Source: Limnobacter sp. 130
GTDB taxonomy: Bacteria; Pseudomonadota; Gammaproteobacteria; Burkholderiales; Burkholderiaceae_B
DNA length: 64,000 bases
NCBI RefSeq assembly: GCF_902506325.1
Contig: NZ_LR732328.1
Span: 1,547,071-1,611,070 of the forward strand
Reading direction: 5' to 3'
The notes below the pieces were generated by a model. It was not told the origin of the DNA and made no database searches. It saw only the letters and a list, made by a program, of their open reading frames with translations. A program made the translations under genes and the position numbers. This document shows, piece by piece, positions 36,649 through 63,783 of this stretch; the stretch's first letter is position 1; every line of letters starts with the position of its first letter.

Positions 36649-36760
36649 TAATTATTAAGCAATATTCGCATCCATTTCCTGATTGACGCCAGTAAAACTC
36701 TCACAAGGCGAAACTTTTGCCGAACTTTTAAATGAACACACCATTGTCGGAGAATGCACT

Positions 36761-38395: not shown

Positions 38396-38438
38396 GCTTT
38401 TGTAGTATTGCGTGGGGCTCCGACCCCCGCGCAAAGTG

Positions 38439-38465
38439 AAAAGGCACCCTTCGGGGTGCCTTTTT
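38439..38465 (+). terminator. Intrinsic terminator after the retention-module gene
   Basis: AAAAGGCACCC-TTCG-GGGTGCCTTTT followed by further T: a strong stem with a stable TTCG tetraloop, 44 bases after the stop codon. Confidence 0.92.
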
Positions 38466-38541
38466 GCGTTTTTACACCACTTAAATAAGTTGAACTTTCC
38501 TTGGGGATTAACCACGCAAAAAGACAATCAGGACATTCATC

Positions 38542-38919: not shown

Positions 38920-39032
38920 CTCCGCAACAAATGGAACTTTGCCCCTTGGGCGGAAACCTAGATGGGCAGGTATCTTTTTTCTGTTTTGACGTGTACCACC
39001 CGGCTACACCTTCCGCTGCAGGAGCATAAGAA

Positions 39033-40052
39033 TTGGAAAACTCAAACTTTAATTTATTACAACTTGTGCCTCCTGCCGCCGTCATGGTCTTACTGGTATC
39101 TGCCTGTTTCTTTTTCTACACGCGCTACGTCAAAGTATCCAAAGCACTTTGCCTGACACTGCAAAAAATCAGCACCACGATTCGCTCGATGAGCGACGGT
39201 GACGAAATGATCAGAAAAACCGGCGTAGGTCGAGTTTTCCAAAACACACAACTCGAACCCATTTGGCGAGACTTCTCTAAAACACTGCACACACAAACAG
39301 GTCTCATCAACGGAATTACAAAAAACAAAAAATCACGCTTGACAGTCCCCGTTTCTTACTACTTCTCCGTCTCATCTGTTGTCGATCGTCCGCTTGCAGT
39401 TGATTACTTCAAGCACCTGCCAGGCATTCTGACAGGCATCGGAATTATCGGAACATTTTCAGGTTTGCTATTTGGACTATCCAATTTTGACGCGTCCAAT
39501 CCCGAACTGATGGCACAAAGCGTCTCTCTTTTACTGGGCGGCGTACGCGACGCTTTCTATGCATCAGCAGCGGCCATCACAATCGCAATGATCATCACCC
39601 ACTGGGAAAAGATGCTTTACCGCCGATGCCTGAGCTCGCTCGATGATCTCGTCGATGCAATCAGCAGCCTCTTTGAAGCCGGCGTTGGAGAAGAATATTT
39701 GGCCACACTTGTCCATCACTCAGCAAACTCAAGTGATCAAGCAAAAAGCCTGAAAGACGAATTGATTCAAGCCATGGTTCCTGTGATCAAGCAATTGGAA
39801 TCTATTCAGTCACAACAAGTCGCCAGCATGGGCGGTGCGCTTGAACAAGCGCTTACTGAGTCCAATCGACGACTGGCCAGTCAAATAGAAACCGCACTGA
39901 TCCGTCAAGTCAAAAGTCCAATTGAAGACATGGGCAAAAAAATGGACAACCGACTAAGCCACATCAAAAGCAATCCCCAAGATCTTGCAAGAAAGGTCAT
40001 TCGGGCAAGACAGCAAGACGGTCAAATAGAAAACAGCCCGGAGGCCGTATGA
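39033..40052 (+). CDS. MotA/TolQ/ExbB-superfamily protein, ZorA-like
   Basis: A 339-residue inner-membrane protein. Membrane segments lie at about residues 13-31, 130-151 and 168-190. The second holds LTGIGIIGTFSGLLFGL, the G-x2-GTF-x-GL signature of MotA/ExbB/ZorA proteins, and a long helical cytosolic tail follows (residues 200-339). It should form the pentameric ring of a proton-driven channel with the next gene, whose start overlaps its stop (ATGA). TTG start with AGGAG eight bases upstream. Its place directly before T3SS genes on the same strand is unusual. Confidence 0.8.
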   Translation: MENSNFNLLQLVPPAAVMVLLVSACFFFYTRYVKVSKALCLTLQKISTTIRSMSDGDEMIRKTGVGRVFQNTQLEPIWRDFSKTLHTQTGLINGITKNKKSRLTVPVSYYFSVSSVVDRPLAVDYFKHLPGILTGIGIIGTFSGLLFGLSNFDASNPELMAQSVSLLLGGVRDAFYASAAAITIAMIITHWEKMLYRRCLSSLDDLVDAISSLFEAGVGEEYLATLVHHSANSSDQAKSLKDELIQAMVPVIKQLESIQSQQVASMGGALEQALTESNRRLASQIETALIRQVKSPIEDMGKKMDNRLSHIKSNPQDLARKVIRARQQDGQIENSPEAV

Positions 40053-40810
40053 GCTTCGGGCAATATCAACAGCCATCAAGAAACGCTGAAGAAGCTGAAA
40101 AACCTTTCTGGATTTCTTACGCCGATTTAATGACCGCCCTAATGATTCTCTTTCTGGTGATCATGGTGACTGCGCTGGCATCGATCACAAAAAAAGCGGA
40201 GCAAACAGTCAAGGAAACTCCAGAGATCAAAGAGCAAGTGGACATGACTAAAGTTCGACTTCAAGAAATTTCAAATATCTGTCAACACTTATCCGAGGAA
40301 GTCGCAAAAACAAACACATCCGTTGAAGTCGATTGCAAACTGAATCGAATCAATTTCGGAGAAGTCGGTCGATTTCAGTCGGACCAATTCAGATTGAGCG
40401 CAGAAGGTGAACAGGCACTCAATCAAGTTGTACCTGCAATTCTGAGCACAGCGAACACGCCAACAGGACAGAAATGGTTAAAACAGGTGCTGATCGAAGG
40501 CTTTACCGACACCGATGGCTCCTACCTTTACAACCTGAACCTAAGCCTGAAACGCTCAGAATGGGTGATGTGCACATTGCTGCGAAACGACCAAAGCACC
40601 GCAGTGCGTTTAAACAATGATCAAAGGCAGCAAGTCAAAAAACTCTTTCTCGCCGGCGGTGTTGCATTCAACCACGTGCGCGACTCCAAAGATGCAAGTC
40701 GACGCGTAGAACTTCGACTCCAGTTCTACGGGGTAGACAAAGCCGAAAAAAATCGATCCCAATACGATGCGAAGTTTGAAGACGACGCAAAAGAACGTTG
40801 TTGGTTGTGA
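40049..40810 (+). CDS. MotB/OmpA-like protein, ZorB-like
   Basis: A 253-residue partner of the preceding channel protein. One membrane segment at residues 22-45 starts WISYADLMTALMILFLV; Asp26 is in the position of the proton-carrying aspartate of MotB and ZorB. Residues 95-235 form an OmpA-like peptidoglycan-binding domain (VLIEGFTDTDGSYLYNLNLSLKRSEWV). Together with the upstream gene it forms a predicted stator-type ion-driven motor unit anchored to the cell wall. No ZorC, ZorD or ZorE gene follows; instead T3SS genes begin 67 bases later. Confidence 0.8.
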   Translation: MSFGQYQQPSRNAEEAEKPFWISYADLMTALMILFLVIMVTALASITKKAEQTVKETPEIKEQVDMTKVRLQEISNICQHLSEEVAKTNTSVEVDCKLNRINFGEVGRFQSDQFRLSAEGEQALNQVVPAILSTANTPTGQKWLKQVLIEGFTDTDGSYLYNLNLSLKRSEWVMCTLLRNDQSTAVRLNNDQRQQVKKLFLAGGVAFNHVRDSKDASRRVELRLQFYGVDKAEKNRSQYDAKFEDDAKERCWL

Positions 40811-40877
40811 TCATGCACGCGAACTTTTAGCCCAATCCGTCAACTCAGACAACACGAGTTCATCAGGAGCACCTTCA

Positions 40878-41300
40878 ATGATTAATTCCGCCGCAGCAAC
40901 ATCAGCCATCGCACTTGGCCAAGCAGGTCAGATTCAGGCACCCCAAGACAACATCAATCAGTTTCAAACACTCCTGAAAAGCATCAATGGTGCATTAAGC
41001 AGTGGAACTCAAAGTCTCTCTAAACGATCCGTAGAAGATACCAAGCGCAGCCAGGGCACGCTAATCGAAGAGACTGCCGCAAGTGTCAACGAAGCGGAAC
41101 TCGCCATCAAGGAACTTGAAAAAGAGCTCAATCAAAGCACTTTTGAGCTGAAGGGTTCGCTCGCATTGAACTCCGAATTTACACAATCCGTGGTTTACCA
41201 GAAATTTACCGCCACAGCCTATTTTGTAAGCATGAGCAGAATCAGCAACCGGGGCGAGAACATTTCCGAAGAAATGAATTCCATTACCAAAAGGCGCTAA
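40878..41300 (+). CDS. sctI: T3SS inner-rod candidate (SctI, EscI/YscI-like)
   Basis: A 140-residue polar, helical protein, located immediately before sctJ as yscI and escI are. Length suits EscI. The C-terminal region (VVYQKFTATAYFVSMSRISN) is helical and could assemble into the inner rod. The ATG at 40878 has GGAG at a good distance. Sequence similarity to known SctI is weak by eye, so the call rests mainly on size and position; another candidate lies at 47258-47599. Confidence 0.5.
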   Translation: MINSAAATSAIALGQAGQIQAPQDNINQFQTLLKSINGALSSGTQSLSKRSVEDTKRSQGTLIEETAASVNEAELAIKELEKELNQSTFELKGSLALNSEFTQSVVYQKFTATAYFVSMSRISNRGENISEEMNSITKRR

Positions 41301-41303
41301 ATT

Positions 41304-42101
41304 TTGAAAACCGCGCTCAAACTCATCATTCGCTCAATCGGCTACCTCTTTCTTATCGGTGCCTTGCAAGCCTGTTCCGGCAACAGTCAGCTTTTCAGTG
41401 GATTGTCGCAAGAAGAAGGCAATGAAATTTACTCCAGTCTTCTAGAGGCCGGCATTCCCGTGGAAAAGTCATTGGGCAAAGAGGGAGTCATCATCTCGGT
41501 ACCCAAGCAAATGTCCTCTGACGCACTCCGAATTCTTCAGTCGCAAGGACTACCCCGAGCGAAAAAAACATCGATGGGTGAGGTCTTCAAGAAAGAAAGC
41601 ATGATTAGCTCACCACTGGAGGAGCGTGCCAGATACCTGTATGCACTGTCCCAGGAGCTCGAAGAAACCTTGATGAGCATGGATGGCGTTTTATCTGCCC
41701 GAGTACATATTGTTCTGCCGGAACGTGCCAACCCAGGTGAAGTACTCTCCCCCTCGTCGGCTGCTGTGTTCGTTAAATACGAGAACGGATCGTCCTTTCC
41801 AGCTTACGTTCCACGCGTCAGGGAACTGATATTCAAAAGCATTCCCGGAATAACAGGCGAAGTCAATACAAGTATCTCCGTGGCCGCCATTCCTTCAGAA
41901 CCGCGTGGCGATGCCTGCTTACCGCTTCTTTGGTATGGCCCACTGGCGCTAAGCGAAGAAGACCGCATTTACTTTCTCAGCATCGTTTATCTGATCGTGG
42001 CGCTCTGGGTACTCTCACTGGGGATAGTGTGGCTCCAGGCCAAAGACGAAAATGAGTGGCCCGAAGTATTGCGCAAACTAAAACTCAGGATCTTCAAATG
42101 A
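41304..42101 (+). CDS. sctJ: T3SS inner-membrane ring lipoprotein SctJ
   Basis: A 265-residue protein of the YscJ/PrgK/FliF family. Lipoprotein signal ends in LIGALQAC. The ring-building motif 1 starts LFSGLSQEEGNEIYSSLLEAGIPVEK and motif 2 contains LYALSQELEETLMSMDGVLSARVHIVLPE. A C-terminal membrane helix is present (IYFLSIVYLIVALWVLSLGIVW). It forms the inner of the two inner-membrane rings with SctD. TTG start two bases after the upstream stop; its stop overlaps the next ATG. Confidence 0.93.
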   Translation: MKTALKLIIRSIGYLFLIGALQACSGNSQLFSGLSQEEGNEIYSSLLEAGIPVEKSLGKEGVIISVPKQMSSDALRILQSQGLPRAKKTSMGEVFKKESMISSPLEERARYLYALSQELEETLMSMDGVLSARVHIVLPERANPGEVLSPSSAAVFVKYENGSSFPAYVPRVRELIFKSIPGITGEVNTSISVAAIPSEPRGDACLPLLWYGPLALSEEDRIYFLSIVYLIVALWVLSLGIVWLQAKDENEWPEVLRKLKLRIFK

Positions 42102-42841
42102 CTGGTGAACTCACATTTTCGAGTCGCTGGTGGGCATGGTGGTCGAACCCGCTCATCGCAATTCACGAAGAACATCGCGTCTCACTGCCCCTGACAAAAG
42201 AGCAGCTCGACAACATCGATTATTTCAACTTGCTTCAATTGCGAAGTACATTGAATATGCCAGAACTACCCGATGATCGCCTGATCCTGCGTCCAGAGTT
42301 ACGCAGCATTGCCATCGCGACAAACAACGTACTTGAAGAACATCTTCAACGATTCGCCTTGTTCAGCCTGGACGCAAGTATTCTTCACGCACGTCCACAA
42401 GACTGGGAAAGTAGTTTTGGCGTGAACTCGCCCGAAGTAATCCGCGAAATCATTGTATTGAAAAACGATCTGCCTGATGCCTTGATCCAATGGCAGGAAT
42501 CGGCGGCGCGCCATATGGCCAACACCTTGAAGAAACAACTGTTTCTTCACGACAGAATACGACTGGGGTTTGCGGTTTACCTCCGAAGCTACTTTCCGAA
42601 AATCTATCAGCGCTGGCAACTTACACAAGCCAAAGAGATCATCGACTGGAGCAATGATCTTGAGCCCATTCCACAAGAGCTGTGGGACGTGATTGACCAC
42701 TGGAGTGAAGCCGCCTTCTGCGCCTTGCACAGCGAAGTCTATTCGCACCACGAAGTCATGGAACTTCACTTCGACCCAGACGACACATCCGACAATTCAT
42801 TCGAGGAAATCGATTTTCTACACAAGGAAGATCATGCTTAA
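42098..42841 (+). CDS. sctK: T3SS sorting-platform protein candidate SctK
   Basis: A 247-residue soluble acidic protein between sctJ and sctL, the usual place of sctK (YscK). It is coupled to sctJ by an ATGA overlap and to sctL by an eight-base overlap. Length fits YscK/MxiK-type proteins, which link the ring to SctQ pods in the cytosol. The family is poorly conserved, so identity is by position and size more than by motif. Confidence 0.6.
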   Translation: MTGELTFSSRWWAWWSNPLIAIHEEHRVSLPLTKEQLDNIDYFNLLQLRSTLNMPELPDDRLILRPELRSIAIATNNVLEEHLQRFALFSLDASILHARPQDWESSFGVNSPEVIREIIVLKNDLPDALIQWQESAARHMANTLKKQLFLHDRIRLGFAVYLRSYFPKIYQRWQLTQAKEIIDWSNDLEPIPQELWDVIDHWSEAAFCALHSEVYSHHEVMELHFDPDDTSDNSFEEIDFLHKEDHA

Positions 42842-43502
42842 CCTCATCAAGCGGGTTCATTTTCCTGAAGGCCTTCAAATATCAGGCGGTGTCGTTAAAG
42901 CGGCCCTGTTAAATCACGTTAGCACCTATCACGATTTACTGAATCAGGCGCACAGGCAAGCCCAAATCATTTTGCGTGATGCAAATGACGAAGCTGAACG
43001 AATCAAGGAAAAATCCCGACAGCTTGCTGCAAACTCAGTGCGCGAAGACCTGGTGTCCCTCAAAGAGATCACTGCCCGGAAAGAAAATAATCTGCTCGAT
43101 AATTCCTCGTCAATTTGCACAGAAGTTTGCGTGGTTGTTCTTGAGCAGTTCATTTCAACTGCATCCGATTTTCTCAAAATCAAAACACTTGCCGAAGCGC
43201 TGGTCATCCGTTCTCACAGCGCACGGGAACTGAATCTTCAAGCCAATCCAGACCAGGTAGATTTGGTTAAAAAGGTACTTGCCGAAGTCCTCGCTGAACA
43301 AATGAACCTTAGAAAGTGGAATGTAAAAGCCGATGAAGAACTACAACCATTTGAACTGAAAATAAGCACGGCAAACGGAGCCGAAATCAATGTGTCTTTG
43401 AATAATCTGATCGCGATGTACAAAGAAGAGATTGAACGTCTCGAACCTGCATTGGTACCTGTGATAAAAAATCTTGAGGTCAACAGTGAAAGTATTTCTT
43501 AA
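42834..43502 (+). CDS. sctL: T3SS ATPase stator SctL
   Basis: A 222-residue protein of the HrpE/YscL/FliH family. Residues 35-75 are a charged coiled coil (HRQAQIILRDANDEAERIKE), as in the peripheral stalk proteins that dimerise and hold the ATPase SctN; the C-terminal half is a globular domain with the ending typical of FliH-like proteins. It overlaps the sctC start by 17 bases. Confidence 0.85.
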   Translation: MLNLIKRVHFPEGLQISGGVVKAALLNHVSTYHDLLNQAHRQAQIILRDANDEAERIKEKSRQLAANSVREDLVSLKEITARKENNLLDNSSSICTEVCVVVLEQFISTASDFLKIKTLAEALVIRSHSARELNLQANPDQVDLVKKVLAEVLAEQMNLRKWNVKADEELQPFELKISTANGAEINVSLNNLIAMYKEEIERLEPALVPVIKNLEVNSESIS

Positions 43503-45213
43503 ATTACTCATTCTTGCTTTAGTCCTCGCCCCGCTTGCATCACGCGCAGCCACAACAGACAAAGTCGAAACAAAAGTCTATCTTGCGCAAGACGAGAGTG
43601 CCAAACGGGTTATTGAAAAAATGTTGTCGATGTTTGGGAAGCGTTTGGTTGCAGACAGTATTCCAAGCTCGCCAGTCAGTGGTCGATTTGAAGTTAAAAC
43701 AGTTGATGACGTGATGGCCTATTTTGAAAGTGCCTATCAAATCAATTGGTTTCAGAACGGCCTGAATGTGTATACCTACAGATCAGGAAACTGGCGAACA
43801 AAGCGAATTTATGTGGGTGGCGATCGCTCCAACGACGACTGGAAAGAACTGCTTACTTCAGCAGGCCTTTACTACAAAGAGTTCCCGTTTGTATTTCATA
43901 TGGACAGCAAAGAACTCATTGTTTCCGGCCCCGCCAGCTACCTGTCATTAATAGAAGACTCCTTTGAGCAGGACCGGCCCGATCCATCCGAGATCGCAAA
44001 GCACGGAACGCAACTGATGGTCTTTCCGCTCAAGCACGCCTCAGTCGAAGACAGGCAAACCAACTTGCGCGGAACCATGGTTACCACGCCGGGTGCACTC
44101 TCGGTGCTGTTGAACTTGCTGGGGCTTCCAAATCAGCAAATGGCAAATTCTCCGGAAGCAAAAAAACCGGGCATGAACGTTGAACGCTCCCCCTACAGCC
44201 TTAGTCCTGGCGAAGGTTTGATGATGGGGGAAAGAATTGGTGCTTTGCCTGTCTCACCCAGTAGCGGGGTGAAAAAGAAAGCCGATGACGACCCTGAGAA
44301 AGCAGAGTTTGTCAGCGTCACAGCAGACCCACGTACCAACTCAATCTTGATTCGTGACGCAAAGAGTAAGCACGACTACTACAAGAATCTGATTGATCAA
44401 CTGGACCGTCAGGTGGCGATGATCGAGGTTGAAGCAATGATGGTCGAGGTCGATCAAAAAGGACTCAATGAATTGGGTCTGGAATTTGGTTTGCTGTCGG
44501 ATCGGTTTGCCTACGACTTTCCCGGCAGCGGCGTTGGCCGGCCAAGTTTGATCGCAGCCGGCGCCACTTCCATCGTTGACCCAATGCGTTTTATGGCCAG
44601 GTTAAAAGCACTCTCTGCCGATGAAAACGCAAAAGTACTTGCGCGCCCAACAATTGTGACCCAAGACAATGTGTCCGCTTACATCGACCTTAGCCAAACA
44701 CTTTATATCCAGGTTTCTGGCGAACGCGTTGCCGACGTTATTCCAATTACAGCAGGTAGCCTGTTACAGGTCACTCCCCGAGTAGTCATCGATGAACAGG
44801 AAGAGCGGATTTTCCTGCGCATTGAAATTCAAGACGGCAGCCTTACCGAAAATACGCAAGGAATCAACATGCCCAGGGTGCAGAACACATCACTAAGCAC
44901 CCAAGCTGTAATTCAACGGGAAAAGGCCATCCTAATTGGCGGATATAACAGAGAATCCACTGAAGTTAATGACTACAAAGTCCCCCTGCTCGGAGACATA
45001 CCGTATATCGGAAAGGCGTTCACTTCCACGGAAAAGCGTACACAAACTGTTGCAAGGCTTTTCCTGATTACGCCACGACTGATTGACCGGCCAATTCACG
45101 ATTCGGAATCCACACGCAAAGCGGTGAAAGAACTCCAGATGTCATTCAAATTGAAAGGAGACAACCTTGAAGGAACTCCCTCTTTGAAACTCGACAGCAC
45201 TATTCCGAGGTAA
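43486..45213 (+). CDS. sctC: T3SS outer-membrane secretin SctC
   Basis: A 575-residue secretin with signal peptide MKVFLKLLILALVLAPLASRA. The N0/N1 domains include GRFEVKTVDDVMAYFESAYQ, and the C-terminal secretin core has RQVAMIEVEAMMVEVD and VPLLGDIPYIGKAF. It forms the outer-membrane ring of the injectisome. GTG at 43486 follows GAGG and gives a clean signal peptide; a TTG four codons earlier is less likely. The lack of a recognisable pilotin in the window means it may assemble with one encoded elsewhere. Confidence 0.93.
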   Translation: MKVFLKLLILALVLAPLASRAATTDKVETKVYLAQDESAKRVIEKMLSMFGKRLVADSIPSSPVSGRFEVKTVDDVMAYFESAYQINWFQNGLNVYTYRSGNWRTKRIYVGGDRSNDDWKELLTSAGLYYKEFPFVFHMDSKELIVSGPASYLSLIEDSFEQDRPDPSEIAKHGTQLMVFPLKHASVEDRQTNLRGTMVTTPGALSVLLNLLGLPNQQMANSPEAKKPGMNVERSPYSLSPGEGLMMGERIGALPVSPSSGVKKKADDDPEKAEFVSVTADPRTNSILIRDAKSKHDYYKNLIDQLDRQVAMIEVEAMMVEVDQKGLNELGLEFGLLSDRFAYDFPGSGVGRPSLIAAGATSIVDPMRFMARLKALSADENAKVLARPTIVTQDNVSAYIDLSQTLYIQVSGERVADVIPITAGSLLQVTPRVVIDEQEERIFLRIEIQDGSLTENTQGINMPRVQNTSLSTQAVIQREKAILIGGYNRESTEVNDYKVPLLGDIPYIGKAFTSTEKRTQTVARLFLITPRLIDRPIHDSESTRKAVKELQMSFKLKGDNLEGTPSLKLDSTIPR

Positions 45214-47274: not shown

Positions 47275-47599
47275 CAACATGGCAATGCTTGCTTCGCCAC
47301 CGGGCGCACAAACACCTCAACCACCGCTACACGATATTGCTGACTTCAAAGCAATGATCAACGATGCCGGGCCCATCAACAACACAGTGAAAAGTTTTGT
47401 TGAAAATGCCCAAACAAAGCTGAATCAGAGTGACATGAACATGGGTCAAAAACTCAAAGATTTTGACGCCAATGACAACGTACTCAGTCTGATTGAATCA
47501 ATTCACGAAAGCTCCATGAAGTCTGTGTCAATTCAGCTGACAGGGAAAATTGGCAGCAAAGTTTCGGAAAGTTTTGAGCAATTGGTTAAACAACAGTAG
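47258..47599 (+). CDS. Needle-complex small protein, second SctI-type candidate
   Basis: A 113-residue protein. Its C-terminal helix (MKSVSIQLTGKIGSKVSESF followed by EQLVKQQ) is like the end of inner-rod proteins such as YscI (ending in ...L.k.Q). It is directly followed by the needle-like gene, as prgJ/prgI neighbours are. TTG at 47258 has GGAGG six bases upstream; an ATG at 47279 would lose seven residues. Since the gene before sctJ is also a rod candidate, one of the two may be something else. Confidence 0.5.
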   Translation: MVAAINNMAMLASPPGAQTPQPPLHDIADFKAMINDAGPINNTVKSFVENAQTKLNQSDMNMGQKLKDFDANDNVLSLIESIHESSMKSVSIQLTGKIGSKVSESFEQLVKQQ

Positions 47600-55074: not shown

Positions 55075-56136
55075 TCAACGACTGACTCCCTTATCCTGAT
55101 CAGACGCCATTTCCATGACAGCCCGGAATACCTGGGCTGCAAGCTCCAGGTGTTCTTTCTGAATGTATTCATCTTCTTCGCAGTCCTGATATAGCATTCT
55201 GGCCAACTTCACATTCACGATAATTGGAATTCCGTTTTTCTTGGCAAACTCACGAATTCTTAATGCTTCGTCGTCTGTTCCCATGGCGAGAATGTAAGGC
55301 AAGTCGTGTTTGCCCGGTTCATAATCCAAAGCCACAGAAATATGCGTGGGATTGGCCACGACCGCCTTTGCGCCAGCAACCCGGGTAAGTGATGAATTGA
55401 GAATGCTACGGTGCTCTCTTTTCATTCGCTGCTTTAGTTGTGGATTTCCCATGGACTGCTTTCGTTCATCGGCAATATCTTGGTGGCTCATCCGTAGATT
55501 TTTGATGTGATGCATGTACTCCACAGACCAGTCGATCGCAGCGATGACCATAAAAATGATCAGCGACACAAAAATGATTGCCTTCAACACATGAACCAGC
55601 ACGTCAAAAAACTGAGTCAACCCAGCGCGATAGCTGTAGATCATGTCTCCCATATTGTCTTTGAATACAAGATACCCAACCACAGACAAAATCAGTACTT
55701 TGACGATGGACAACAGCAACTGCACCAAAGATTTTTTCGAGAACATGTTCTTGATATTGGATACGGCATCGAACTTCTTGAATGAAGGCGTTAACGCTTC
55801 TGGCGAAACGAGAAATCCGATTTGAGCCCAGGTAATCAGGGTGGCGGCTATCGCACAAACAGCGATCAAGGGCACAGTGATTGCCACGAAAACATCAAAG
55901 AACATTGAAAAGATGCTTTCTGAGAAAGTCCACGGCTGCTTGAACCCGGCAGTCACGATCAAGTCAAGTAATTCAGAGAAACGTGCCGCATAGTCTTGCG
56001 AAAGCCAAAAGAAAAACATGTAAAACATCAGGAGTTTAAACAGTATCTGGGCGTCTTTGCTGACACTGACCTGCCCCTTCTTCCTGGCATCGTCTAACTT
56101 TTTCTGGGTGGGTTTTTCAGTTTTTTCGCCGCTCAC
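55075..56136 (-). CDS. sctU: T3SS export-apparatus switch protein SctU
   Basis: A 353-residue FlhB/YscU-family protein. It starts MSGEKTEKPTQKKLDDARKK, has four membrane segments and a cytosolic domain with the autocleavage site NPTH at residues 262-265. Cleavage there changes substrate specificity during needle assembly. It is the last gene of the minus-strand export operon and overlaps sctT by four bases. It converges with the secreted-protein block. Confidence 0.97.
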   Translation of the reverse strand: MSGEKTEKPTQKKLDDARKKGQVSVSKDAQILFKLLMFYMFFFWLSQDYAARFSELLDLIVTAGFKQPWTFSESIFSMFFDVFVAITVPLIAVCAIAATLITWAQIGFLVSPEALTPSFKKFDAVSNIKNMFSKKSLVQLLLSIVKVLILSVVGYLVFKDNMGDMIYSYRAGLTQFFDVLVHVLKAIIFVSLIIFMVIAAIDWSVEYMHHIKNLRMSHQDIADERKQSMGNPQLKQRMKREHRSILNSSLTRVAGAKAVVANPTHISVALDYEPGKHDLPYILAMGTDDEALRIREFAKKNGIPIIVNVKLARMLYQDCEEDEYIQKEHLELAAQVFRAVMEMASDQDKGVSR

Positions 56137-56933
56137 TGAACATCTCCGAGAAGCAAATTCAAGCTTTCACTGTATTGCCAGAACATTGTCAGTATTTCCT
56201 GCTCTGCAAAGAACATGAGTGTGATGAGTGCGGCAATGCCAAACACGCTTCGGAGCCCGAACTCAAGGCTGTAAACTTGAAGTTGCTGGGTAAACGCCGA
56301 TATGATTTCGACCACGAGTTCTACAGCCAAGATTGCGATTAATACCGGCCCACTCAACAAGACTGCAAAGGTGATGTGGTCGGCGGCCATGCGCAGCATG
56401 GTGGTCAGCCAACTGTCCAGACTAAGTAGGGTCAAGGTACCTGGTGGCATAATCAAATAACTGTTGAGTAAATGCACCGAGACTGCATGCAAACCCGGCC
56501 CGGCAAAAATCAGTGCTGCAAAAAGCAGACCAAACAATTGCTCGATGGGTAGCTCTTCTCCGCTATCACTACCTGTCGCCTGTGCGGCGAACGTTGCGCC
56601 TCTGTAAACATCGACTAAAGCGCCGAATGCTTTGAACGCGTAGTAGGGAAATGCAATGGTCAGCCCCAGTAGTGCACCCAAAACCACCTCACTGAGAAAG
56701 GTAATCAAGGTGAAAGTCGGTGGGTTCATTGACGAAAAATACAGGGTGGTTGACGCAAATGCCGGGTAGAGAACCAAAACAGAGCCGACCGACATCTTGA
56801 TCAGACTGCTGGAAAGACCTTTCGAGAGCAAAGGGAAAAACACCATAAAACTGACAGTTCTGGGTAAATAATACGAGAGCACCGCAAGAAACTGCCGCAG
56901 TTGTTCGCCGGTGTCGGTCAGTGGCTCTACCAT
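56133..56933 (-). CDS. sctT: T3SS export-apparatus protein SctT
   Basis: A 266-residue SpaR/FliR-family membrane protein with several hydrophobic segments (FMVFFPLLSKGLSSSLIKMS; GALLGLTIAFPYYAFKAFGALVD). The family motif with FAAQATGSDSGEELPIEQLFG is present. It forms the export gate with SctR and SctS. It overlaps the genes on both sides. Confidence 0.95.
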   Translation of the reverse strand: MVEPLTDTGEQLRQFLAVLSYYLPRTVSFMVFFPLLSKGLSSSLIKMSVGSVLVLYPAFASTTLYFSSMNPPTFTLITFLSEVVLGALLGLTIAFPYYAFKAFGALVDVYRGATFAAQATGSDSGEELPIEQLFGLLFAALIFAGPGLHAVSVHLLNSYLIMPPGTLTLLSLDSWLTTMLRMAADHITFAVLLSGPVLIAILAVELVVEIISAFTQQLQVYSLEFGLRSVFGIAALITLMFFAEQEILTMFWQYSESLNLLLGDVQ

Positions 56934-57193
56934 TTAGAACGATGCGGAACCGAGATTAAATCAAACATGGTTTGCGTAAACTGAACCAGCATTTGAGATT
57001 GCCAGGAGCCCAAGGCAAACAGGATAAGTACAACCCCCATTAACTTGATGCCAAAAGGCAAGGCTTGATCCTGCAACTGAAAAATAGCCTGCAGGAAACC
57101 AAGCAATAACCCCAAAACCATTGTGACAACCACCACAGGGGCGGCAACAAGCAATGAAATCCACAATGCCTGATTGACGTAATAAATCAGCAT
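56927..57193 (-). CDS. sctS: T3SS export-apparatus protein SctS
   Basis: An 88-residue protein with two membrane helices, matching the SpaQ/FliQ family in length and motif (ALWISLLVAAPVVVVTMVLG then LLGFLQAIFQLQDQALPFGIK). It packs around the SctR/SctT gate in the inner membrane. It starts three bases after sctR. Confidence 0.95.
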   Translation of the reverse strand: MLIYYVNQALWISLLVAAPVVVVTMVLGLLLGFLQAIFQLQDQALPFGIKLMGVVLILFALGSWQSQMLVQFTQTMFDLISVPHRSKW

Positions 57194-57196
57194 GAT

Positions 57197-57850
57197 TTAC
57201 ACCAAGTAAGAATTGACCAGCCCCTGGAGTACCTTTGCCCATCCCTCGACTGCGACGAACAAAACAATTTTTGCGGGAACGGTGAGTGACATGGGTGACA
57301 CCATCATCATGCCCAAGGCCATCAGGGCGCTTGACACGGCCAGATCAATGATCACGAAAGGCAGGTAAAGATACAATCCGATTCTGAAAGCCTCAGCAAG
57401 TTCGGAGGCAACAAAAGCCGGAAGCACAACAAACAGATCTGTTTTCTCGACTTCAGGTGCATCGTATTTTTTCTGGAATTTTTGTGCCGTTTCATGAAAG
57501 CTGTTGAGGTAACCCGGATTGACATTGGCCAACATGAACTTTTTAAAGGGCGGCACACTGGCATTGATCGACTCGAGCACTTCGGTTCCGCTGACCGGCA
57601 TTTTGCCGTCTGGTGCGAAACGTTGGCCAGCCTCAGTCAATATAGAGCCCATCACCAACAGGGTCATCACCATGGAAATTCCGTACAGCACCATGTTTGA
57701 CGGCACTTGCTGCACACCAATTGCATTGCGCAATATGAGCAACACCGCCGATATTTTCAGGAATGAAGTGGCCGTTACCGCCACCAATGGCAATACGGAT
57801 AGCGAGGCTATCGTGACAATCAGACCAATTGGATTGATGCTTTGATCCAT
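57197..57850 (-). CDS. sctR: T3SS export-apparatus protein SctR
   Basis: A 217-residue SpaP/FliP-family membrane protein. Family motifs include TSFLKISAVLLILRNAIGVQQVPSN and LYLPFVIIDLAVSSALMALGMMMVSP. Five copies form the core of the export gate. It follows sctQ by a 12-base gap, the largest inside this operon. Confidence 0.97.
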   Translation of the reverse strand: MDQSINPIGLIVTIASLSVLPLVAVTATSFLKISAVLLILRNAIGVQQVPSNMVLYGISMVMTLLVMGSILTEAGQRFAPDGKMPVSGTEVLESINASVPPFKKFMLANVNPGYLNSFHETAQKFQKKYDAPEVEKTDLFVVLPAFVASELAEAFRIGLYLYLPFVIIDLAVSSALMALGMMMVSPMSLTVPAKIVLFVAVEGWAKVLQGLVNSYLV

Positions 57851-57862
57851 GTTGAGATTCTC

Positions 57863-58156
57863 TTAGTCGAGTCTTTTTGTGACTTGAACCATCAATTGGT
57901 CCTGAAAGTGCACCAGCTCGCCCTCAAGTATTGGCGAACCCATTACACACAAGGTCACCATTGGCAAGGCATGCTCTCTTAATTCAATCAAGGTGCCTTC
58001 TTGGACGCTGCACAACTCATTAAAAAGAATCTTGGTTTTACCCGCGTGAATCTCTAGTTCGATTTGCTCGTGTGGTGGAAGATTCTCTTCATCAAGACTG
58101 GATGTGTCAGAAAGATCGTCGCTACCAAAGTGGAGTCGTGTGTCGTCTTCGTTCAT
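57863..58156 (-). CDS. Possible internal-start product SctQ-C
   Basis: In YscQ, SpaO and Spa33 a second protein is made from an internal start and contains only the C-terminal SpoA domain. Here an in-frame ATG (MNEDDTRLHFGSDDL) at 58156 would give a 97-residue protein of the expected size. GAGG lies about eleven bases upstream, which is rather far. The product is a prediction by analogy. Confidence 0.35.
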   Translation of the reverse strand: MNEDDTRLHFGSDDLSDTSSLDEENLPPHEQIELEIHAGKTKILFNELCSVQEGTLIELREHALPMVTLCVMGSPILEGELVHFQDQLMVQVTKRLD

Positions 58157-58942
58157 TTCGATGAATACCTCATAGTTTCTTTTTGAAAATTTATCGCCTT
58201 TAAATCGCAGTGAACCGCGTATTGATCGAGACGATGCATTGACCCTAAAATTTTGCAGTGCAACCAAATCACCCTGTTCAAGTTCTGCGAGTTCGGTACT
58301 CAACCACTTTCTTTTTGTTGGATACAAATAAACACTCAACTCGAAAAATACTTTCTTCCCCATGGACTCGTAGTCATTCCAGTAGCGCAGGCAATAGTTC
58401 CGTGCCTTTGCTTCAAGCAGCTTCAGTGTTTGCTTGTCTGACAAAAGAATGAGTTTGTTTTGGCGCTTGTAATCCACGGCCAGGTAGTCGCTGGGGTTTG
58501 AGGTGGGCATTTGATGTGCAGGCAAAAAGTCCTCGACATGAAGCCCGAGAATTGACTCGAGTTCGTTCAGGACAGCACTGACGATATCAATTAGCGGAAC
58601 GATGCCCTCACCACCCCAATCCACGGTTTGGGGTGTAATCAAACTGCCGGTTTGCTCAAAAATATAAGCTGAATCCAGACCAATCTGAATCTCGTTTCCC
58701 TCAGGGAAATTGGCACTGACCCAAATCAGGTCGCTGATCGTACTTTTGTGGGGTAATCCAGTTGTGCGCCGAATCACCAGATCAGAATGCCTGTCGGTAT
58801 CAAAGTAATAAATGCGCTGAGACATTGATCTTGATCGGGCAAAAATTGTGGAACTGGTCGCGTCGTAACGCACTGTTCGAAGTCGATCCAGTGCCCAAAC
58901 CTGCGCCACTTCTTGCTCATTGATGTGTTCAGCTATTTCCAT
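57863..58942 (-). CDS. sctQ: T3SS cytosolic C-ring/pod protein SctQ
   Basis: A 359-residue protein. The C-terminal 80 residues are a SpoA (surface presentation of antigens) domain: HEQIELEIHAGKTKILFNEL, EGTLIELREHALPMVTLCVMG and LVHFQDQLMVQVT. A second, weaker SpoA-like region lies in the middle (LAELEQGDLVALQNFRVN). It builds the cytosolic sorting platform with SctK and SctL. ATG at 58942 overlaps the sctO end. An internal ATG at 58156 could yield a separate C-terminal product. Confidence 0.88.
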   Translation of the reverse strand: MEIAEHINEQEVAQVWALDRLRTVRYDATSSTIFARSRSMSQRIYYFDTDRHSDLVIRRTTGLPHKSTISDLIWVSANFPEGNEIQIGLDSAYIFEQTGSLITPQTVDWGGEGIVPLIDIVSAVLNELESILGLHVEDFLPAHQMPTSNPSDYLAVDYKRQNKLILLSDKQTLKLLEAKARNYCLRYWNDYESMGKKVFFELSVYLYPTKRKWLSTELAELEQGDLVALQNFRVNASSRSIRGSLRFKGDKFSKRNYEVFIEMNEDDTRLHFGSDDLSDTSSLDEENLPPHEQIELEIHAGKTKILFNELCSVQEGTLIELREHALPMVTLCVMGSPILEGELVHFQDQLMVQVTKRLD

Positions 58943-59349
58943 AATTTCTGTAGAAGTACTTCTTCTATTCCCAATAATTTTTTCTCGGCCTGATTCACTT
59001 TCAAGCAACTTTCCTGGTACGCAAGCTGTGCTGACTCGTACTGTTGATGAGATTGATCGATGGACTGCTGGATGTTTTTTATTTTTTTGATGCCCTGTTG
59101 CTGAAGCTTTGTGAAGCTGAGCAGCTGATCCACTTTGACAAAGTTGCCATTGGTCAAACGTTGCAGGGTTTCTACTTCTATTTGAATGAGCCTTTGCTCC
59201 ATTTGCTCAAAATGCGCCTGGGTACTTTCAATGGTTCGCGCGGCCTGATCTTGCTCAAGCGCTTTGAGTTTCTGTTTACGGCGCGATGAATCCACCCGTA
59301 GCTTCCGGATCGCCATGATTTGCTGGAGGTCTTTGGTGAAGGTGTTCAC
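58933..59349 (-). CDS. sctO: T3SS central-stalk protein SctO
   Basis: A 138-residue, almost entirely charged coiled-coil protein (KALEQDQAARTIESTQAHFE; QLAYQESCLKVNQAEKKLLG), placed just after sctN and before sctQ as in other systems. SctO is the gamma/FliJ-like stalk within the ATPase ring and links to SctV. Coupled to sctN by an ATGA overlap. Sequence is poorly conserved in the family, so the call rests on structure and position. Confidence 0.85.
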   Translation of the reverse strand: MNTFTKDLQQIMAIRKLRVDSSRRKQKLKALEQDQAARTIESTQAHFEQMEQRLIQIEVETLQRLTNGNFVKVDQLLSFTKLQQQGIKKIKNIQQSIDQSHQQYESAQLAYQESCLKVNQAEKKLLGIEEVLLQKLWK

Positions 59350-60731
59350 GCTTTCGCCTCTTGAACCAGTCGCTCAAATCCGACAATCAGCGTACCGAGA
59401 CGCGACAATGCCACGGTAGGTGACTCGGGTTCAGACCGGGACTGTTTGCACCATTCATCGAGGCTGGCCTTGATGTTCACGACTTCATCAACCAATGGAT
59501 CGGTACCTGGCTGGTATTCATTAAGCCGAATCAACAGCTCAACTTCCTGATAAAGCGAATAGGCGCGCCTGACCAGTGACGCCAGTTCCTGGGTTTTGGC
59601 GCTGCTGACTGAACCCATGACACGAGACAGACTTTTTAAGGGATCAATTGCGGGGAAATGACTTCGTTCGACCAGTTTGGTGCTGAGTACAATGTGCCCA
59701 TCGAGAAGGCTTTTGGCCTCGCTGGCAATTGGATCATCTTCAATCCGCTCGCCTTCCATGAGTACTGTGAAAACGGCCGTAATATCCCCTTGTTCCGTTC
59801 GACCTGAACGTTCGATCAATTCAGGCAAAATTGAATACACAGAAGGCGTGAATCCCGCCTGTGTGGCAGGCTCCCCGGCCATCAACCCCAGTTCACGCTG
59901 CGCGCGGGCAAGACGCGTTAACGAATCCACAACCAACAAAACAGACTTTCCCTGGTCCCTTAGATATTCGGCAATGGATGTGGCGGTAAACGCAGCACGA
60001 ACACGCTCGATTGCCGATCGGTCAGAAGTAGCGCACACAAAAAAACTTTTTTTGCGAATTTCATCCGTGATTTCTTTTTCGATGAACTCCCTCAACTCAC
60101 GACCGCGTTCGCCCACAAGACCAAACACCACAGCATCCACATTCGCACCGCGAACAATTTGGGCCATCAAGGTGCTTTTGCCACAACCAGGGGGTGCAAA
60201 AATACCCACCCTTTGGCCAATACCAAGGGTAAGCAGTCCATCAATGACCCGCACTTTCGTGACGAGCGGCTCGCTAACGGGTGGTCTTTTACTGGCTGGA
60301 GGTGCCACCTGAATGACGGGTCGTGCATCGGAATCGACCGACAAGACGCCGGATCGACGGTCATACGGGTGATCCAGATTGCGGCCCATGCCATCGAGGA
60401 GCGATGAAAGCAAGTGATCTGACGCCTTAATGCTGTGCGCTCGGCCCAAGGGCAACACTCGGGAACCCAAAGCGACTCCGGCGACAGATTCAAGACACGA
60501 GATGGTGACAATATTTTCAGAGAACGCGATAACCTCGCTAAGGATTTTATGCCCGCCAGACGTTTCAATTTCACACAACTCACCTTGCACCACATCGGGC
60601 AAAATCGCCTTGACTGTAGAAACAATAATTTCACTGACATACCCAACACGTTTCACGGGGTTGATCTGCCCAATCCGGGCTTGAAGCTGATTGACGATTG
60701 CAGGTGCCAGCAGGGCCGTGGCGCTGCGCAT
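59346..60731 (-). CDS. sctN: T3SS ATPase SctN
   Basis: A 461-residue F1-type ATPase. Walker A APPGCGKST is at residues 179-187 and Walker B LLVVD at 265-269, followed by the family signature with GFTPSVYSILPELIERSG. It unfolds and feeds substrates into the export gate. It overlaps sctD by one base (TGATG) and sctO by four. Confidence 0.97.
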   Translation of the reverse strand: MRSATALLAPAIVNQLQARIGQINPVKRVGYVSEIIVSTVKAILPDVVQGELCEIETSGGHKILSEVIAFSENIVTISCLESVAGVALGSRVLPLGRAHSIKASDHLLSSLLDGMGRNLDHPYDRRSGVLSVDSDARPVIQVAPPASKRPPVSEPLVTKVRVIDGLLTLGIGQRVGIFAPPGCGKSTLMAQIVRGANVDAVVFGLVGERGRELREFIEKEITDEIRKKSFFVCATSDRSAIERVRAAFTATSIAEYLRDQGKSVLLVVDSLTRLARAQRELGLMAGEPATQAGFTPSVYSILPELIERSGRTEQGDITAVFTVLMEGERIEDDPIASEAKSLLDGHIVLSTKLVERSHFPAIDPLKSLSRVMGSVSSAKTQELASLVRRAYSLYQEVELLIRLNEYQPGTDPLVDEVVNIKASLDEWCKQSRSEPESPTVALSRLGTLIVGFERLVQEAKA

Positions 60732-61669
60732 CAGAGGACAACCTCATAAACGGCTTCGCCCTGAAAAACTACTTTTCGGGAATCGACGCTGAGCAAATTA
60801 ACACCTTGATACTGCCCGCCGACGTACAGCCTTGCCCCGTCTCGCAGGATAACAACAGGGCGACTACCAAGAACAACCTGCTCAATGGCAATTTCATCGA
60901 TACGGCGCTGCTCTTCAGTCAACGCCAGGCGGGCACGGATATCCACTTTCTCACCGTAATCGATGACCAGACGATCCAGGAGTTTTTCAAACTTGATGGA
61001 CTGTGCCCTCGACAACTCCGCGTCGATATCCACACGGTCATCATCCACATTTACCGAGAGTTGGTTTGTGGAGGCTCTGATTGCAAAATCATTGATCTCG
61101 TTTGCCACGTTCTCTGCCATGCGACTCTCAAGGGTAGAAAGCGGTTTCAATTTGTAGGTGTTGTTCAAGTTTGGTTTCTTGATGACGCTTGCCTCTGACT
61201 TGACAACACCCGCCGTGCCGAAGAACAAAACGACTGTGGTCAACAACAAGCCGATAATGAATAGTAAGGCGACGATTGCCCTGGCTCCTATGCCCCGTAA
61301 GAGTTGCACCAATTGATGGAGTGTTCTGGCGAACCCGTCATTCAATGACGACATCAGCCCACTGGTGCCGTTGACGATCTGCAACTCGATTTGTATGTGC
61401 TTGAAATCAAGCGTGAGCAGTTGCGAGGGGAAAAGCGTGTTGTCTACCTTTTTTTGATCAGGTGCGGTTAACCTGGCCTCTGAATGCAGGGTCTCGATGT
61501 TGAACCGACGCCCGCTTTTTCTGAGTGTGATCAAGGTATCCGGAATTTCAGGATCGCACAGGAATACATCTGACTGAGAGTTTGCACCCAGGCTGACCAG
61601 CGAGTTGTCCAGTCGCCAGACCGCACCGGCATGCAATCCTGACTTGGCCTTAACCTGAATGTGGATCAT
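60731..61669 (-). CDS. sctD: T3SS outer inner-membrane ring protein SctD
   Basis: A 312-residue protein with an N-terminal FHA-like cytosolic domain (HAGAVWRLDNSLVSLGANSQ...), one membrane helix at about residues 132-155 (AIVALLFIIGLLLTTVVLFF) and a short periplasmic region with ring-building repeats ending VFQGEAVYEVVL. It is shorter than YscD (about 420) and closer to the size of HrpQ/BscD-like forms. ATGA overlap with sctV. Confidence 0.88.
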   Translation of the reverse strand: MIHIQVKAKSGLHAGAVWRLDNSLVSLGANSQSDVFLCDPEIPDTLITLRKSGRRFNIETLHSEARLTAPDQKKVDNTLFPSQLLTLDFKHIQIELQIVNGTSGLMSSLNDGFARTLHQLVQLLRGIGARAIVALLFIIGLLLTTVVLFFGTAGVVKSEASVIKKPNLNNTYKLKPLSTLESRMAENVANEINDFAIRASTNQLSVNVDDDRVDIDAELSRAQSIKFEKLLDRLVIDYGEKVDIRARLALTEEQRRIDEIAIEQVVLGSRPVVILRDGARLYVGGQYQGVNLLSVDSRKVVFQGEAVYEVVL

Positions 61670-63783
61670 GATGTGACTCCGTCAGCAAATGGATTGTTTC
61701 TCGCTTGAAGATTTAGATTGATGTTGCCTAACACTTGAATTTCCATGTTTGAAGAAATTTCTTGATGAGAAAGAACCGGAATGATGAACAATGAGTCTTG
61801 AATGATTTGGCGGAAAAACACCCGGCAATCCATTGAACACACAATGGCGGGCACATAGTTTCCAACCAGATGCGGCCTGCACTGCTCCTCGACAATTTCG
61901 ATTAGTTCATTGAGGGAGCTGGAATCAATGTCAACAAATGATCCATTGCCGTCACTTCGACTCGACTCTCGTATCAACTGTTCAAATTCCACGCCCAACA
62001 TAAAGACTTTGAGTTTTCGCTCGTGGGTATGTTGATGGCATATTTGCTCGAACAAGCCACGGCGTACCTGCTCGGCGATAACCATGGGGTCTCGCTCGCG
62101 TTGCCCCCATTCAATTAATGAATTCAAAATTGAACGCATGTTTTTGATTGAAACTGATTCGCCAAGCAAGCGTTGCAACACCTCCACCACTTTGGTAACG
62201 GGTAACACGCGCTCAAGTTCCTTGAGTTGTTCTGTGTACTTGTCACCCAAAGTGGTCATATGTCTTTGATATTCATTCAAGGTGAATAGCTGGTCGACCT
62301 TCTGGACCAACAACGCTTCAATTTGCGATACCAATCTTGTTTCGAATGTCAGGTATTCCAGCTTGTGCTGATCGAGAAGTGTTTTCTGAAGGGGGTCGCA
62401 CAGCATGTCGTATTTACCGGTAACAACATCTTTCTCAATCACGAATTCAATACCGGGCACGGCCTGTACCAATGACTGATCGCTGCGAATGCTGAGCCGC
62501 TTTTCGGAGATATGAATGGACATGGCCGGTACGCCGTACACATAGAACTCGACAAAACTCTCGGTGTGATTGGTGAACTCGAACAACGGAAACAGAATGC
62601 CCAAATGTTCTACTCGCCGGTTTCTCGCAATTCTGCAAATATTCTGAATTTGATTGGCAGCAGTGGGCTCGATGTCTACAGGCAACCGCACCTCAAGGGG
62701 TGCGAAAGTATTGGTGTGCAAGATGTCGTCCATCTTGACGCTTTTACCGCTGGCAGACAGCATGTCGCTGAACTGCGTGGACACATCGACGTCTGCGGCT
62801 TTGTCAGTTTTTCTCGAGATGAAGTACCAACCACACAGCAGCGTTGCCGAAGTGGCGAGGAATACATAACTGGGCATGCCAGGAACGAATGCGAACAGAA
62901 AACAGAAAATGCCGCTGATTTGAAGTGCGTTTGAATTTCGGCTGAGGTCTTTCAACATGTCTTGCGCAGTGTTGGATCCGTCAGCCTCGCCTTTGGTAAC
63001 ACGCGTCACAATCAAACCGGCCGCGATGGAAACCATCAACGATGGAATGATAGCGACCAGTCCGTCGCCTACTGACAAAATGGTGTACACCGACCCCGCT
63101 TCAGAAAAGGTCATTCCCTTCTGAATCATGCCGACCGTTAAACCACCCAGCAGGTTAACCACCGTGATAACGAGCCCGGCAATTGCATCATTTTTTACAA
63201 ACTTGATCGCACCGTCCATTGCACCAAATAACTGCGACTCTTTTTCAAGGTCGGAACGGCGTTGTTTCGCAACTGTTTGAGTAATTAACCCGGCACGCAG
63301 ATCGCTGTCGATGGACATTTGCTTTCCGGGCATGCCGTCGAGTGAGAAACGCGCAGCCACTTCAGCAACACGCTCGGAACCCTTGGTAATCACCAGAAAA
63401 TTAACAACAGAAATAATGAGGAAAATCGTTAAACCAACGGCCACATTGCCGCCCACGACGAACTCGCCGAAGGTTTGGACAATATGTCCGGCATCACCCT
63501 CTAGTAGAATTTGTCGTGTAGTGGAAATGGTGAGAGACAACCGAAACAAGGTTGTCATCAAAAGAAGCGCAGGAAATGAAGAAAATGCCAGCGGGGTTTC
63601 AATGAGTACGGCACTGATTACAAGCACGACCGACACAGAAATATTGATGGCCAGGAGTACATCGAGAATGCCCGGGCCCATGGGTATCACCATCATGACG
63701 ATCATGAGGATGATGAGAGATGCACCAACCACCTCGGACCGTGCAGAAGCCAGCCTTGCAAACCTGTTTAACACTTCGATCAT
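61666..63783 (-). CDS. sctV: T3SS major export gate protein SctV
   Basis: A 705-residue FlhA/YscV-family protein. Seven to eight membrane segments fill the first 330 residues, with family motifs FVVGGNVAVGLTIFLIISVV, ERVAEVAARFSLDGMPGKQM and NLLGGLTVGMIQKGM. The C-terminal cytosolic domain forms the nonameric ring that selects substrates and uses the proton gradient. GAGGA precedes the ATG at 63783. It is the first gene of the minus-strand operon in this window. Confidence 0.97.
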   Translation of the reverse strand: MIEVLNRFARLASARSEVVGASLIILMIVMMVIPMGPGILDVLLAINISVSVVLVISAVLIETPLAFSSFPALLLMTTLFRLSLTISTTRQILLEGDAGHIVQTFGEFVVGGNVAVGLTIFLIISVVNFLVITKGSERVAEVAARFSLDGMPGKQMSIDSDLRAGLITQTVAKQRRSDLEKESQLFGAMDGAIKFVKNDAIAGLVITVVNLLGGLTVGMIQKGMTFSEAGSVYTILSVGDGLVAIIPSLMVSIAAGLIVTRVTKGEADGSNTAQDMLKDLSRNSNALQISGIFCFLFAFVPGMPSYVFLATSATLLCGWYFISRKTDKAADVDVSTQFSDMLSASGKSVKMDDILHTNTFAPLEVRLPVDIEPTAANQIQNICRIARNRRVEHLGILFPLFEFTNHTESFVEFYVYGVPAMSIHISEKRLSIRSDQSLVQAVPGIEFVIEKDVVTGKYDMLCDPLQKTLLDQHKLEYLTFETRLVSQIEALLVQKVDQLFTLNEYQRHMTTLGDKYTEQLKELERVLPVTKVVEVLQRLLGESVSIKNMRSILNSLIEWGQRERDPMVIAEQVRRGLFEQICHQHTHERKLKVFMLGVEFEQLIRESSRSDGNGSFVDIDSSSLNELIEIVEEQCRPHLVGNYVPAIVCSMDCRVFFRQIIQDSLFIIPVLSHQEISSNMEIQVLGNINLNLQARNNPFADGVTS

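What the first reader, a model, noticed from the sequence alone, without database searches (positions are those of the whole stretch)
39033..40810. Stator-like proton-channel pair (ZorA/ZorB or MotA/MotB type) heading a T3SS operon
Two overlapping genes encode a MotA/ExbB-fold protein with the GTF-x-GL signature and a MotB-like protein with a membrane Asp26 and an OmpA-type wall-binding domain. They stand 67 bases before sctI-sctJ on the same strand. Known injectisomes have no dedicated stator; flagella do. The pair lacks the ZorC/D/E effectors of Zorya phage defence. It may energise or anchor this injectisome, or be a reduced defence or motor unit that inserted at the operon head.
Basis: partly seen in the sequence, partly recalled or inferred. 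Interest (0 to 1): 0.88.

Follow-up and report, generated by a model that had tools for sequence, protein, structure and literature searches.

The report
Phage-defence motor adopted by injectisome
In the bacterium Limnobacter, a two-gene ion-driven motor related to the sensor of a phage-defence system has lost its defence partners and most of its long tail and is inherited together with a protein-injection machine, which raises the possibility that this machine has its own dedicated motor.

Summary
The pair is real: 39033-40052 and 40049-40810 encode ZorA- and ZorB-type proteins (PADLOC ZorA1 2.7e-81, ZorB1 1.6e-89) just before sctJ. The window is Limnobacter. Of 16 genus genomes, 11 have the short zorA: in 9 it shares contig and strand with zorB and sctJ, in G001 it is truncated and split over contigs, in G009 it lies apart from the injectisome. 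G004 keeps only pieces of zorA, zorB and sctV; G005 and G015 have neither injectisome nor pair; G012 and G014 have more distant injectisomes without it. The short ZorAs are one clade (100/100) within long type I ZorAs; ZorB alone does not show this. Pair-bearing injectisomes are one SctV clade (100/99). No ZorC/ZorD was found in the window or 16 loci; the tail has about 120 instead of 500 residues. Selection is strongly purifying. Best reading: a Zorya I motor pair domesticated, with tail loss, as an ion-driven, wall-anchored accessory of this T3SS lineage. Its effect on secretion is inferred; nothing functional was measured and the structure job never returned.

The parts
39033..40052 (+). 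short-tailed ZorA-like protein (339 aa; three hydrophobic stretches, GTFSGL, Thr141 and Ser178, ~120 aa tail ending in a PQDLARKVIRA-type motif)
40049..40810 (+). ZorB-like protein (253 aa; Asp26 in membrane helix, OmpA-type wall-binding domain)
40878..41300 (+). small gene in the sctI position before sctJ; no SctI family match
   Evidence: tblastn match in the same place in G006, G007, G008, G010, G013
41304..42101 (+). sctJ, inner-ring lipoprotein
   Evidence: TIGR02544
42098..42841 (+). gene in the sctK position, no profile match
42834..43502 (+). sctL (HrpE Pfam above cut-off; NCBIfam SctL below its cut-off)
43474..45213 (+). sctC secretin
47276..47599 (+). possible SctI (weak)
   Evidence: below cut-off
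55075..56136 (-). sctU (just below cut-off)
56133..56933 (-). sctT (below cut-off)
56927..57193 (-). sctS
57197..57850 (-). sctR
57863..59008 (-). sctQ (below cut-off)
59346..60731 (-). sctN-type ATPase
60731..61669 (-). sctD-like, 312 aa (below cut-offs)
61666..63783 (-). sctV (just below cut-off)
38436..38467 (+). terminator-like hairpin after the retention-module gene, between it and zorA

Best explanation
A type I Zorya ZorA-ZorB pair was taken up by an ancestor of this Limnobacter injectisome lineage, lost the ZorC and ZorD effectors and about three quarters of the ZorA tail, and has since been inherited as an accessory unit of the injectisome. By homology it should form a ZorA5-ZorB2 ion-driven rotary complex: ZorB Asp26 and a ZorA Ser/Thr ring carry ions, the ZorB OmpA-type domain holds the cell wall, and the five ZorA tails form a short cytoplasmic bundle. 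I propose that this bundle, perhaps by its conserved end motif, contacts the cytoplasmic side of the injectisome, so that ion flow and wall engagement energise, gate or position secretion, much as SiiAB does for a type I secretion system. Shown: homology, kept key residues, common origin of the short ZorAs, tail loss, linkage, purifying selection. Inferred: assembly, ion flow, contact with the injectisome and the effect on secretion.
For: Profiles and PDB: ZorA1/ZorB1 best; E. coli ZorA 1.7e-51, ZorB 5.4e-76. ZorA chains of 280, 434 and 495 aa were also solved, five copies each, in entries that hold two ZorB chains each, so a shorter tail need not stop assembly. Linkage: same contig and strand as sctJ in 9 genomes; order sctU-zorA-zorB-sctJ in G007, G003, G002; zorAB stays with sctJ in G000, G006, G008 and G010, where sctV lies apart on the other strand. 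Presence: zorA in 11 of 11 genomes with an intact-looking injectisome of this clade (truncated in G001; G011 placed by SctJ only), none in G005, G012, G014, G015, remnants beside an sctV remnant in G004. Common origin of short ZorA and of pair-bearing injectisomes. Pairwise identities of ZorA or ZorB against SctJ, SctC, SctV over 8 of the 11 genomes: r 0.93-0.97. dN/dS G000/G006: zorA 0.053, zorB 0.017, sctJ 0.016, sctC 0.014; tail 0 nonsynonymous against 10 synonymous changes. Asp26 and wall-binding positions kept. Tail hydrophobicity has a 96-degree period in 7 of 7 short ZorAs tested, 6 of them reached by at most 3 of 1000 shuffles, as in the one long ZorA tested. A separate MotA-type and TolQ/ExbB-type proteins exist in the genome (matched fragments only). 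Zorya I without its ZorA extension loses defence (PMC11890865, section 6 part 1).
Against: No functional data. All pair-bearing loci are one genus; in 9 of the 14 genomes with injectisome genes the island lies within about 20 kb of the same dehydrogenase gene, so linkage is largely one inherited arrangement, not many independent events. G009 keeps the pair away from its injectisome (sctU and sctJ nearly adjacent there), G001's copy is truncated and split, and G012 and G014 have injectisomes without it, so it is not needed for type III secretion as such. The ZorB tree does not show the short-form ZorBs as one group (0 of 200 bootstrap trees; G010's Zorya ZorB falls among them), so ZorA and ZorB may not share one simple history. 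The deletion that kills Zorya I removes the whole extension, while about 100 residues remain here. No short relative was found outside the genus in 399 order, 369 class and 268 family genomes, apart from one distant 333 aa frame not examined.
Confidence: 0.62

Rival explanations
1. Sensor rather than motor for secretion (a narrower reading that overlaps with the best explanation, so the two odds are not exclusive): the pair reports ion-motive force or wall state to the cytoplasmic injectisome parts and switches secretion on or off, a SiiAB-like control role without power transfer.
For: ZorAB is proposed to sense wall disturbance in Zorya (PMC11890865, passages); SiiAB controls retention of SiiE in dependence on proton motive force (PMC6272769, passages); wall-binding residues kept.
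Against: Nothing here separates sensing from driving.
Confidence: 0.45
2. A reduced phage-defence unit that merely lives in the island, perhaps guarding it or using other effectors.
For: Clear Zorya I ancestry; G010 holds a full ZorABCD elsewhere, and its ZorB is as close to the window's as those of other injectisome-linked pairs (59%).
Against: No ZorC/D match in the window or in 16 other loci (the G009 and G011 contigs are too short to judge, and the rest of the genome was not searched for them); most of the tail needed for Zorya I defence is missing; decay together with the injectisome in G004.
Confidence: 0.12
3. Passenger: an old insertion that stays because it heads the sctJ operon and carries its promoter or translational coupling.
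For: Mostly one site, one genus; pair stands at the operon head in the window.
Against: dN/dS of 0.02-0.05, kept ion and wall residues, pair kept in G009 where it is apart from sctJ, kept through rearrangement of the island.
Confidence: 0.08

Closest known systems
Zorya type I ZorA1-ZorB1 (E. coli 8qyd/8qyh/8qyk/8qyy; Shewanella 8vvn)
   Same: ZorA core and nearly the whole of ZorB homologous, key residues kept, gene order zorA-zorB
   Different: tail ~120 aa instead of ~500; no ZorC/ZorD in the locus; embedded in a T3SS locus; below NCBIfam cut-offs (ZorA1 235 of 750 bits, ZorA_3 216 of 250, ZorB1 337 of 400)
SiiA-SiiB of Salmonella SPI-4 (type I secretion)
   Same: a MotAB-like ion channel pair that serves a secretion system (PMC6272769, passages)
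   Different: another secretion system; sequence relation to SiiAB was not tested here
Flagellar MotA-MotB
   Same: channel fold, membrane Asp, OmpA-type domain
   Different: weak sequence similarity (MotA_ExbB below cut-off); the genome has its own MotA-type protein
Motors of type 9 secretion, gliding, Ton and Tol systems
   Same: ion-driven pentamer:dimer motors coupled to envelope machines (named in passages of PMC11890865 and PMC12204202)
   Different: not compared by sequence here, except with TolQ/ExbB-like proteins of the same genome

Membership tests
Zorya type I defence system | ZorB1-type subunit | tested here: met
   PADLOC 1.6e-89; NCBIfam ZorB1 full length but 337 bits, under its cut-off of 400
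Zorya type I defence system | ZorA1 with long cytoplasmic tail | tested here: not met
   339 aa, matching profile positions 12-298 of 663; 20 of 21 matching order genomes outside the genus have frames of 523-741 aa, the exception being G287 with 333 aa
Zorya type I defence system | ZorC and ZorD in the locus | tested here: not met
   tblastn of G010 ZorC and ZorD: nothing in the window or 16 other loci but one 22-residue chance match (E 0.52); control L037 found; the same queries found ZorC at 27% identity in other Zorya loci
Zorya type I defence system | phage protection | not testable with these tools
   needs plaque assays
5:2 ion-driven motor family | membrane Asp in B subunit and Ser/Thr ring in A subunit | tested here: met
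   Asp26 in 13 of 13 ZorBs aligned; Thr141 and Ser178 invariant in 8 of 8 short ZorAs; that these two are the ring residues is recalled, by offset to E. coli numbering
5:2 ion-driven motor family | 5:2 assembly | tested here: inconclusive
   homologues solved with 5 ZorA and 2 ZorB chains; the structure job never returned and would have given a monomer only
Component of the injectisome | genetic linkage and shared gain and loss with sct genes | tested here: met
   exception in linkage: G009
Component of the injectisome | physical contact or secretion phenotype | not testable with these tools
   needs bench work
Flagellar MotAB stator | MotA equivalog match | tested here: not met
   no MotA match for ZorA; a MotA-type protein is at G000:C1:819749

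The most novel reading that the evidence does not exclude
The first injectisome with a dedicated ion-driven rotary stator: a former phage-defence motor whose trimmed tail bundle turns or pushes on the injectisome's cytoplasmic platform, giving type III secretion a flagellum-like, ion-powered drive or clutch.
Probability: 0.3. Interest if true: 0.93.

Novelty: new variant of a known kind. Interest (0 to 1): 0.76.

Why it matters
A motor pair inherited with one injectisome lineage, and derived from a defence system, would make the question whether type III secretion can be driven or gated by a separate ion motor directly testable in a genus with natural pair-bearing and pair-free members. It also shows a defence module recruited to another machine, and warns that defence annotation by ZorA/ZorB profiles can mislabel such pairs.

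Tried and rejected
Rejected: flagellar MotAB, TolQR or ExbBD. Rejected: recent insertion or chance neighbour. Considered: another MotA-like pair in the pair-free injectisomes of G012 and G014 and in the stretches held of five injectisome-bearing genomes of other genera (G272, G098, G142, G157, G044): none by hmmsearch at E 1 or less; several of those stretches hold only part of the island.

Against a simple history: in the ZorB tree (10 short-form and 3 long-form rows) the short-form ZorBs were one group in 0 of 200 bootstrap trees; most of its forks are open. The SctJ tree is also mostly open, but sets G012 and G014 apart (97/96). In the rooted ZorA tree one of five outgroup rows (the MotA-type L087) did not join the others. 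In the SctV tree G012 and G014 are long branches and G012's place is weak (83/56).

Rows dropped before counts: G011 from the SctV tree (in pieces); G001 and L071 from the rooted ZorA tree; 10 genomes of other genera with an SctV match were used, not all that one search listed; 8 of the 11 genomes with the pair; 7 of the 10 full-length short ZorAs; 8 in alignment A1.

Paper searches that could have shown the link in print: (open-licence PMC library; capped listings; one search matched 4,161 papers and is uninformative). By title and abstract none of the listed papers links ZorAB with a type III system. Two listed papers hold the words Zorya, ZorA and type III secretion: PMC12204202 (passages seen: not linked) and PMC9148166 (not opened). 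Absence from print is therefore not shown. The main Zorya structure paper (PMC11946911) was not held.

Full report
What is there. The window lies in a Limnobacter genome (G000, contig C3; the named relatives found are Limnobacter sp. MED105, L. parvus and L. litoralis). Two overlapping genes at 39033-40052 and 40049-40810 encode a ZorA-type and a ZorB-type protein. ZorB matches the E. coli Zorya I ZorB over residues 9-234 (E 5.4e-76). ZorA matches E. coli ZorA over residues 16-305 only (E 1.7e-51): the E. coli chain has 729 residues, this one 339. The tail after the membrane core is thus about 120 residues instead of about 500.

Surroundings. Upstream, a LapA-type retention-module gene (36683-38395, NCBIfam match below cut-off) is followed by a terminator-like hairpin at 38436-38467. 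Downstream, after 67 bases without a promoter-like or terminator-like site, come a small gene in the sctI place, sctJ, a gene in the sctK place, sctL and sctC. The export block sctV to sctU lies at 55075-63783 on the other strand. The scan of 38400-41400 found no promoter-like site at all and about as many terminator-like sites as in shuffles (5 against 4.2), so it says little about transcription.

Distribution in the genus. Of 16 genus genomes, 12 match ZorA: 11 with a short frame (263 aa and truncated in G001) and G004 with two pieces of a deleted copy. ZorB matches 13 of 16, in G012 only at E 2e-4, in G001 and G004 over part of its length. An injectisome SctJ is found in 13 of 16 (G004, G005 and G015 show only FliF-level matches), an injectisome SctV in 14 of 16, G004's being partial and G011's in pieces. 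In G000, G006, G007, G008, G010, G013, G011, G003 and G002 zorA, zorB and sctJ share contig and strand, with 453-861 bases from zorB to the sctJ match. In G007, G003 and G002 sctU stands directly upstream; in G001 too, 86 bases before the zorA match, which stops at about residue 230; its zorB piece is on another contig with sctJ. G009 has sctU and sctJ next to each other with a small gene between and has zorAB on a separate 4.4 kb contig near the retention-module gene. The more distant injectisomes of G012 and G014 have no such pair between sctU and sctJ or in the 19 kb held.

Beyond the genus. The ZorA profile A1 found 21 genomes outside the genus among 399 of the order at E 1e-20: 20 with long frames (523-741 aa) and one distant 333 aa frame (G287, not followed up); 7 among 268 of the family at E 1e-30, all long (673-702 aa); and only the own genome among 369 of the class at E 1e-30 (the three samples overlap in part). 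The two nearest long relatives outside the genus (G194, G131) and G010's second copy stand in complete ZorABCD loci. So the short form is, as far as sampled, a Limnobacter feature.

History. On the ZorA tree the 11 short forms are one side of a branch with 100/100 support, on a long stem (0.94), next to the long ZorA of G010 (97/88) and then G194 and G131; with TolQ/MotA-type proteins of the genome as outgroup the short group remains nested among long forms (the outgroup rows are very long branches and the MotA-type row did not join the rest). The SctV tree puts the pair-bearing injectisomes, G004's remnant and G009 in one clade (100/99), G014 next, then G012 (weak, 83/56), then ten systems of other genera. 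The simplest history is one gain with tail loss on the stem of this injectisome clade, one loss of linkage in G009 and joint decay in G004. Two results qualify it. The ZorB tree never shows the short-form ZorBs as one group (0 of 200 bootstrap trees), with G010's Zorya ZorB among them and 59% identical to the window's; exchange of zorB between the two loci, or too little signal, would explain this. And the island lies within about 20 kb of the same acyl-CoA dehydrogenase-like gene (my reading of its sequence; no profile was run on it) in G000, G001, G004, G006, G007, G008, G010, G012 and G014 (9 of the 14 genomes with injectisome genes; in the rest it is on another contig or has no match at the cut-off), so vertical descent at one site explains much of the linkage.

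Selection and anatomy. dN/dS is 0.053 (zorA) and 0.017 (zorB) for G000/G006, 0.000 and 0.023 for G013/G008, like sctJ (0.016, 0.051) and sctC (0.014 for G000/G006); the other pairs are at or near saturation at synonymous sites. Asp26 and the stretches that bind wall in Zorya I (round LSLKRS and SRRVEL) are kept (which residues matter in Zorya I is from PMC11890865, section 6 part 1 and passages, matched here by alignment of motifs, not by number). The tail has the 96-degree hydrophobic period in 7 of 7 short ZorAs tested, as in the one long ZorA tested; in G002 63 of 1000 shuffles reach it. The tail ends in a short conserved stretch at 316-326 (majority identity 0.72 between flanks of 0.56 and 0.42) for which no good match was found in the long tails; the best was 7 bits in G010's long ZorA.

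Mechanism. Zorya I loses defence when the ZorA extension is removed or when a component is missing (PMC11890865, section 6 part 1), so defence by the Zorya I route is unlikely here, though about 100 tail residues remain. The pair most likely still forms an ion-conducting, wall-anchored rotary unit and serves the injectisome. The closest working precedent is SiiAB, a MotAB-like proton channel that controls surface retention of a type I-secreted adhesin in dependence on proton motive force (PMC6272769, passages). Tol-Pal, which uses another such motor, is reported to matter for type III secretion in enterohaemorrhagic E. coli and Citrobacter rodentium (cited in PMC12204202, passage seen). Whether the Limnobacter unit powers, gates, positions or senses cannot be told from sequence.

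Known context. The Limnobacter injectisome itself was seen before: MED105 is listed in a table of secretion systems with one in the first column, which I take as T3SS (PMC2702493, passage; it says that six marine bacteria had one), and Limnobacter T3SS from Ostreococcus cultures fell beside the Hrp1 family (PMC4224133, section 13 read). I saw no mention of the motor pair in these passages.

Verdict.

Noticed in passing
L037:3093-11339 (G010, contig C1): A complete type I Zorya locus (ZorA 833 aa, ZorB, ZorC, ZorD) with a DNA methyltransferase-like gene nearby, in a Limnobacter that also has the short injectisome-linked pair; its ZorB is as similar to the window's ZorB (59%) as several injectisome-linked ZorBs are.
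   Followed up: partly
window 47276-47599: Weak SctI (YscI/HrpB) match far from sctJ, while the gene in the usual sctI place (40878-41300) has none.
   Followed up: partly
L088:1123-2387 (own genome, contig C6): Another short MotA/ExbB-like protein (216 aa, weak ZorA_2-type match) followed by a membrane-protein-like frame.
   Followed up: no
L033 and L047, between zorB and sctJ: A small membrane-protein-like frame (about 65 aa) sits between zorB and the sctI-position gene in G003 and G001.
   Followed up: no
window 36683-38395: Retention-module (LapA-like) repeat-rich protein at the edge of the injectisome island, with tblastn matches of 64-88% in G006, G008, G009 (end only), G010 (a second piece at 49%), G012 and G013.
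   Followed up: no
G009 contigs C74 and C10 (L046, L032): Injectisome with sctU next to sctJ and zorAB on a separate short contig: a natural case of an unlinked pair, in an assembly with 6% contamination.
   Followed up: partly
L071 (G287): A distant ZorA-like frame of only 333 aa outside the genus.
   Followed up: no
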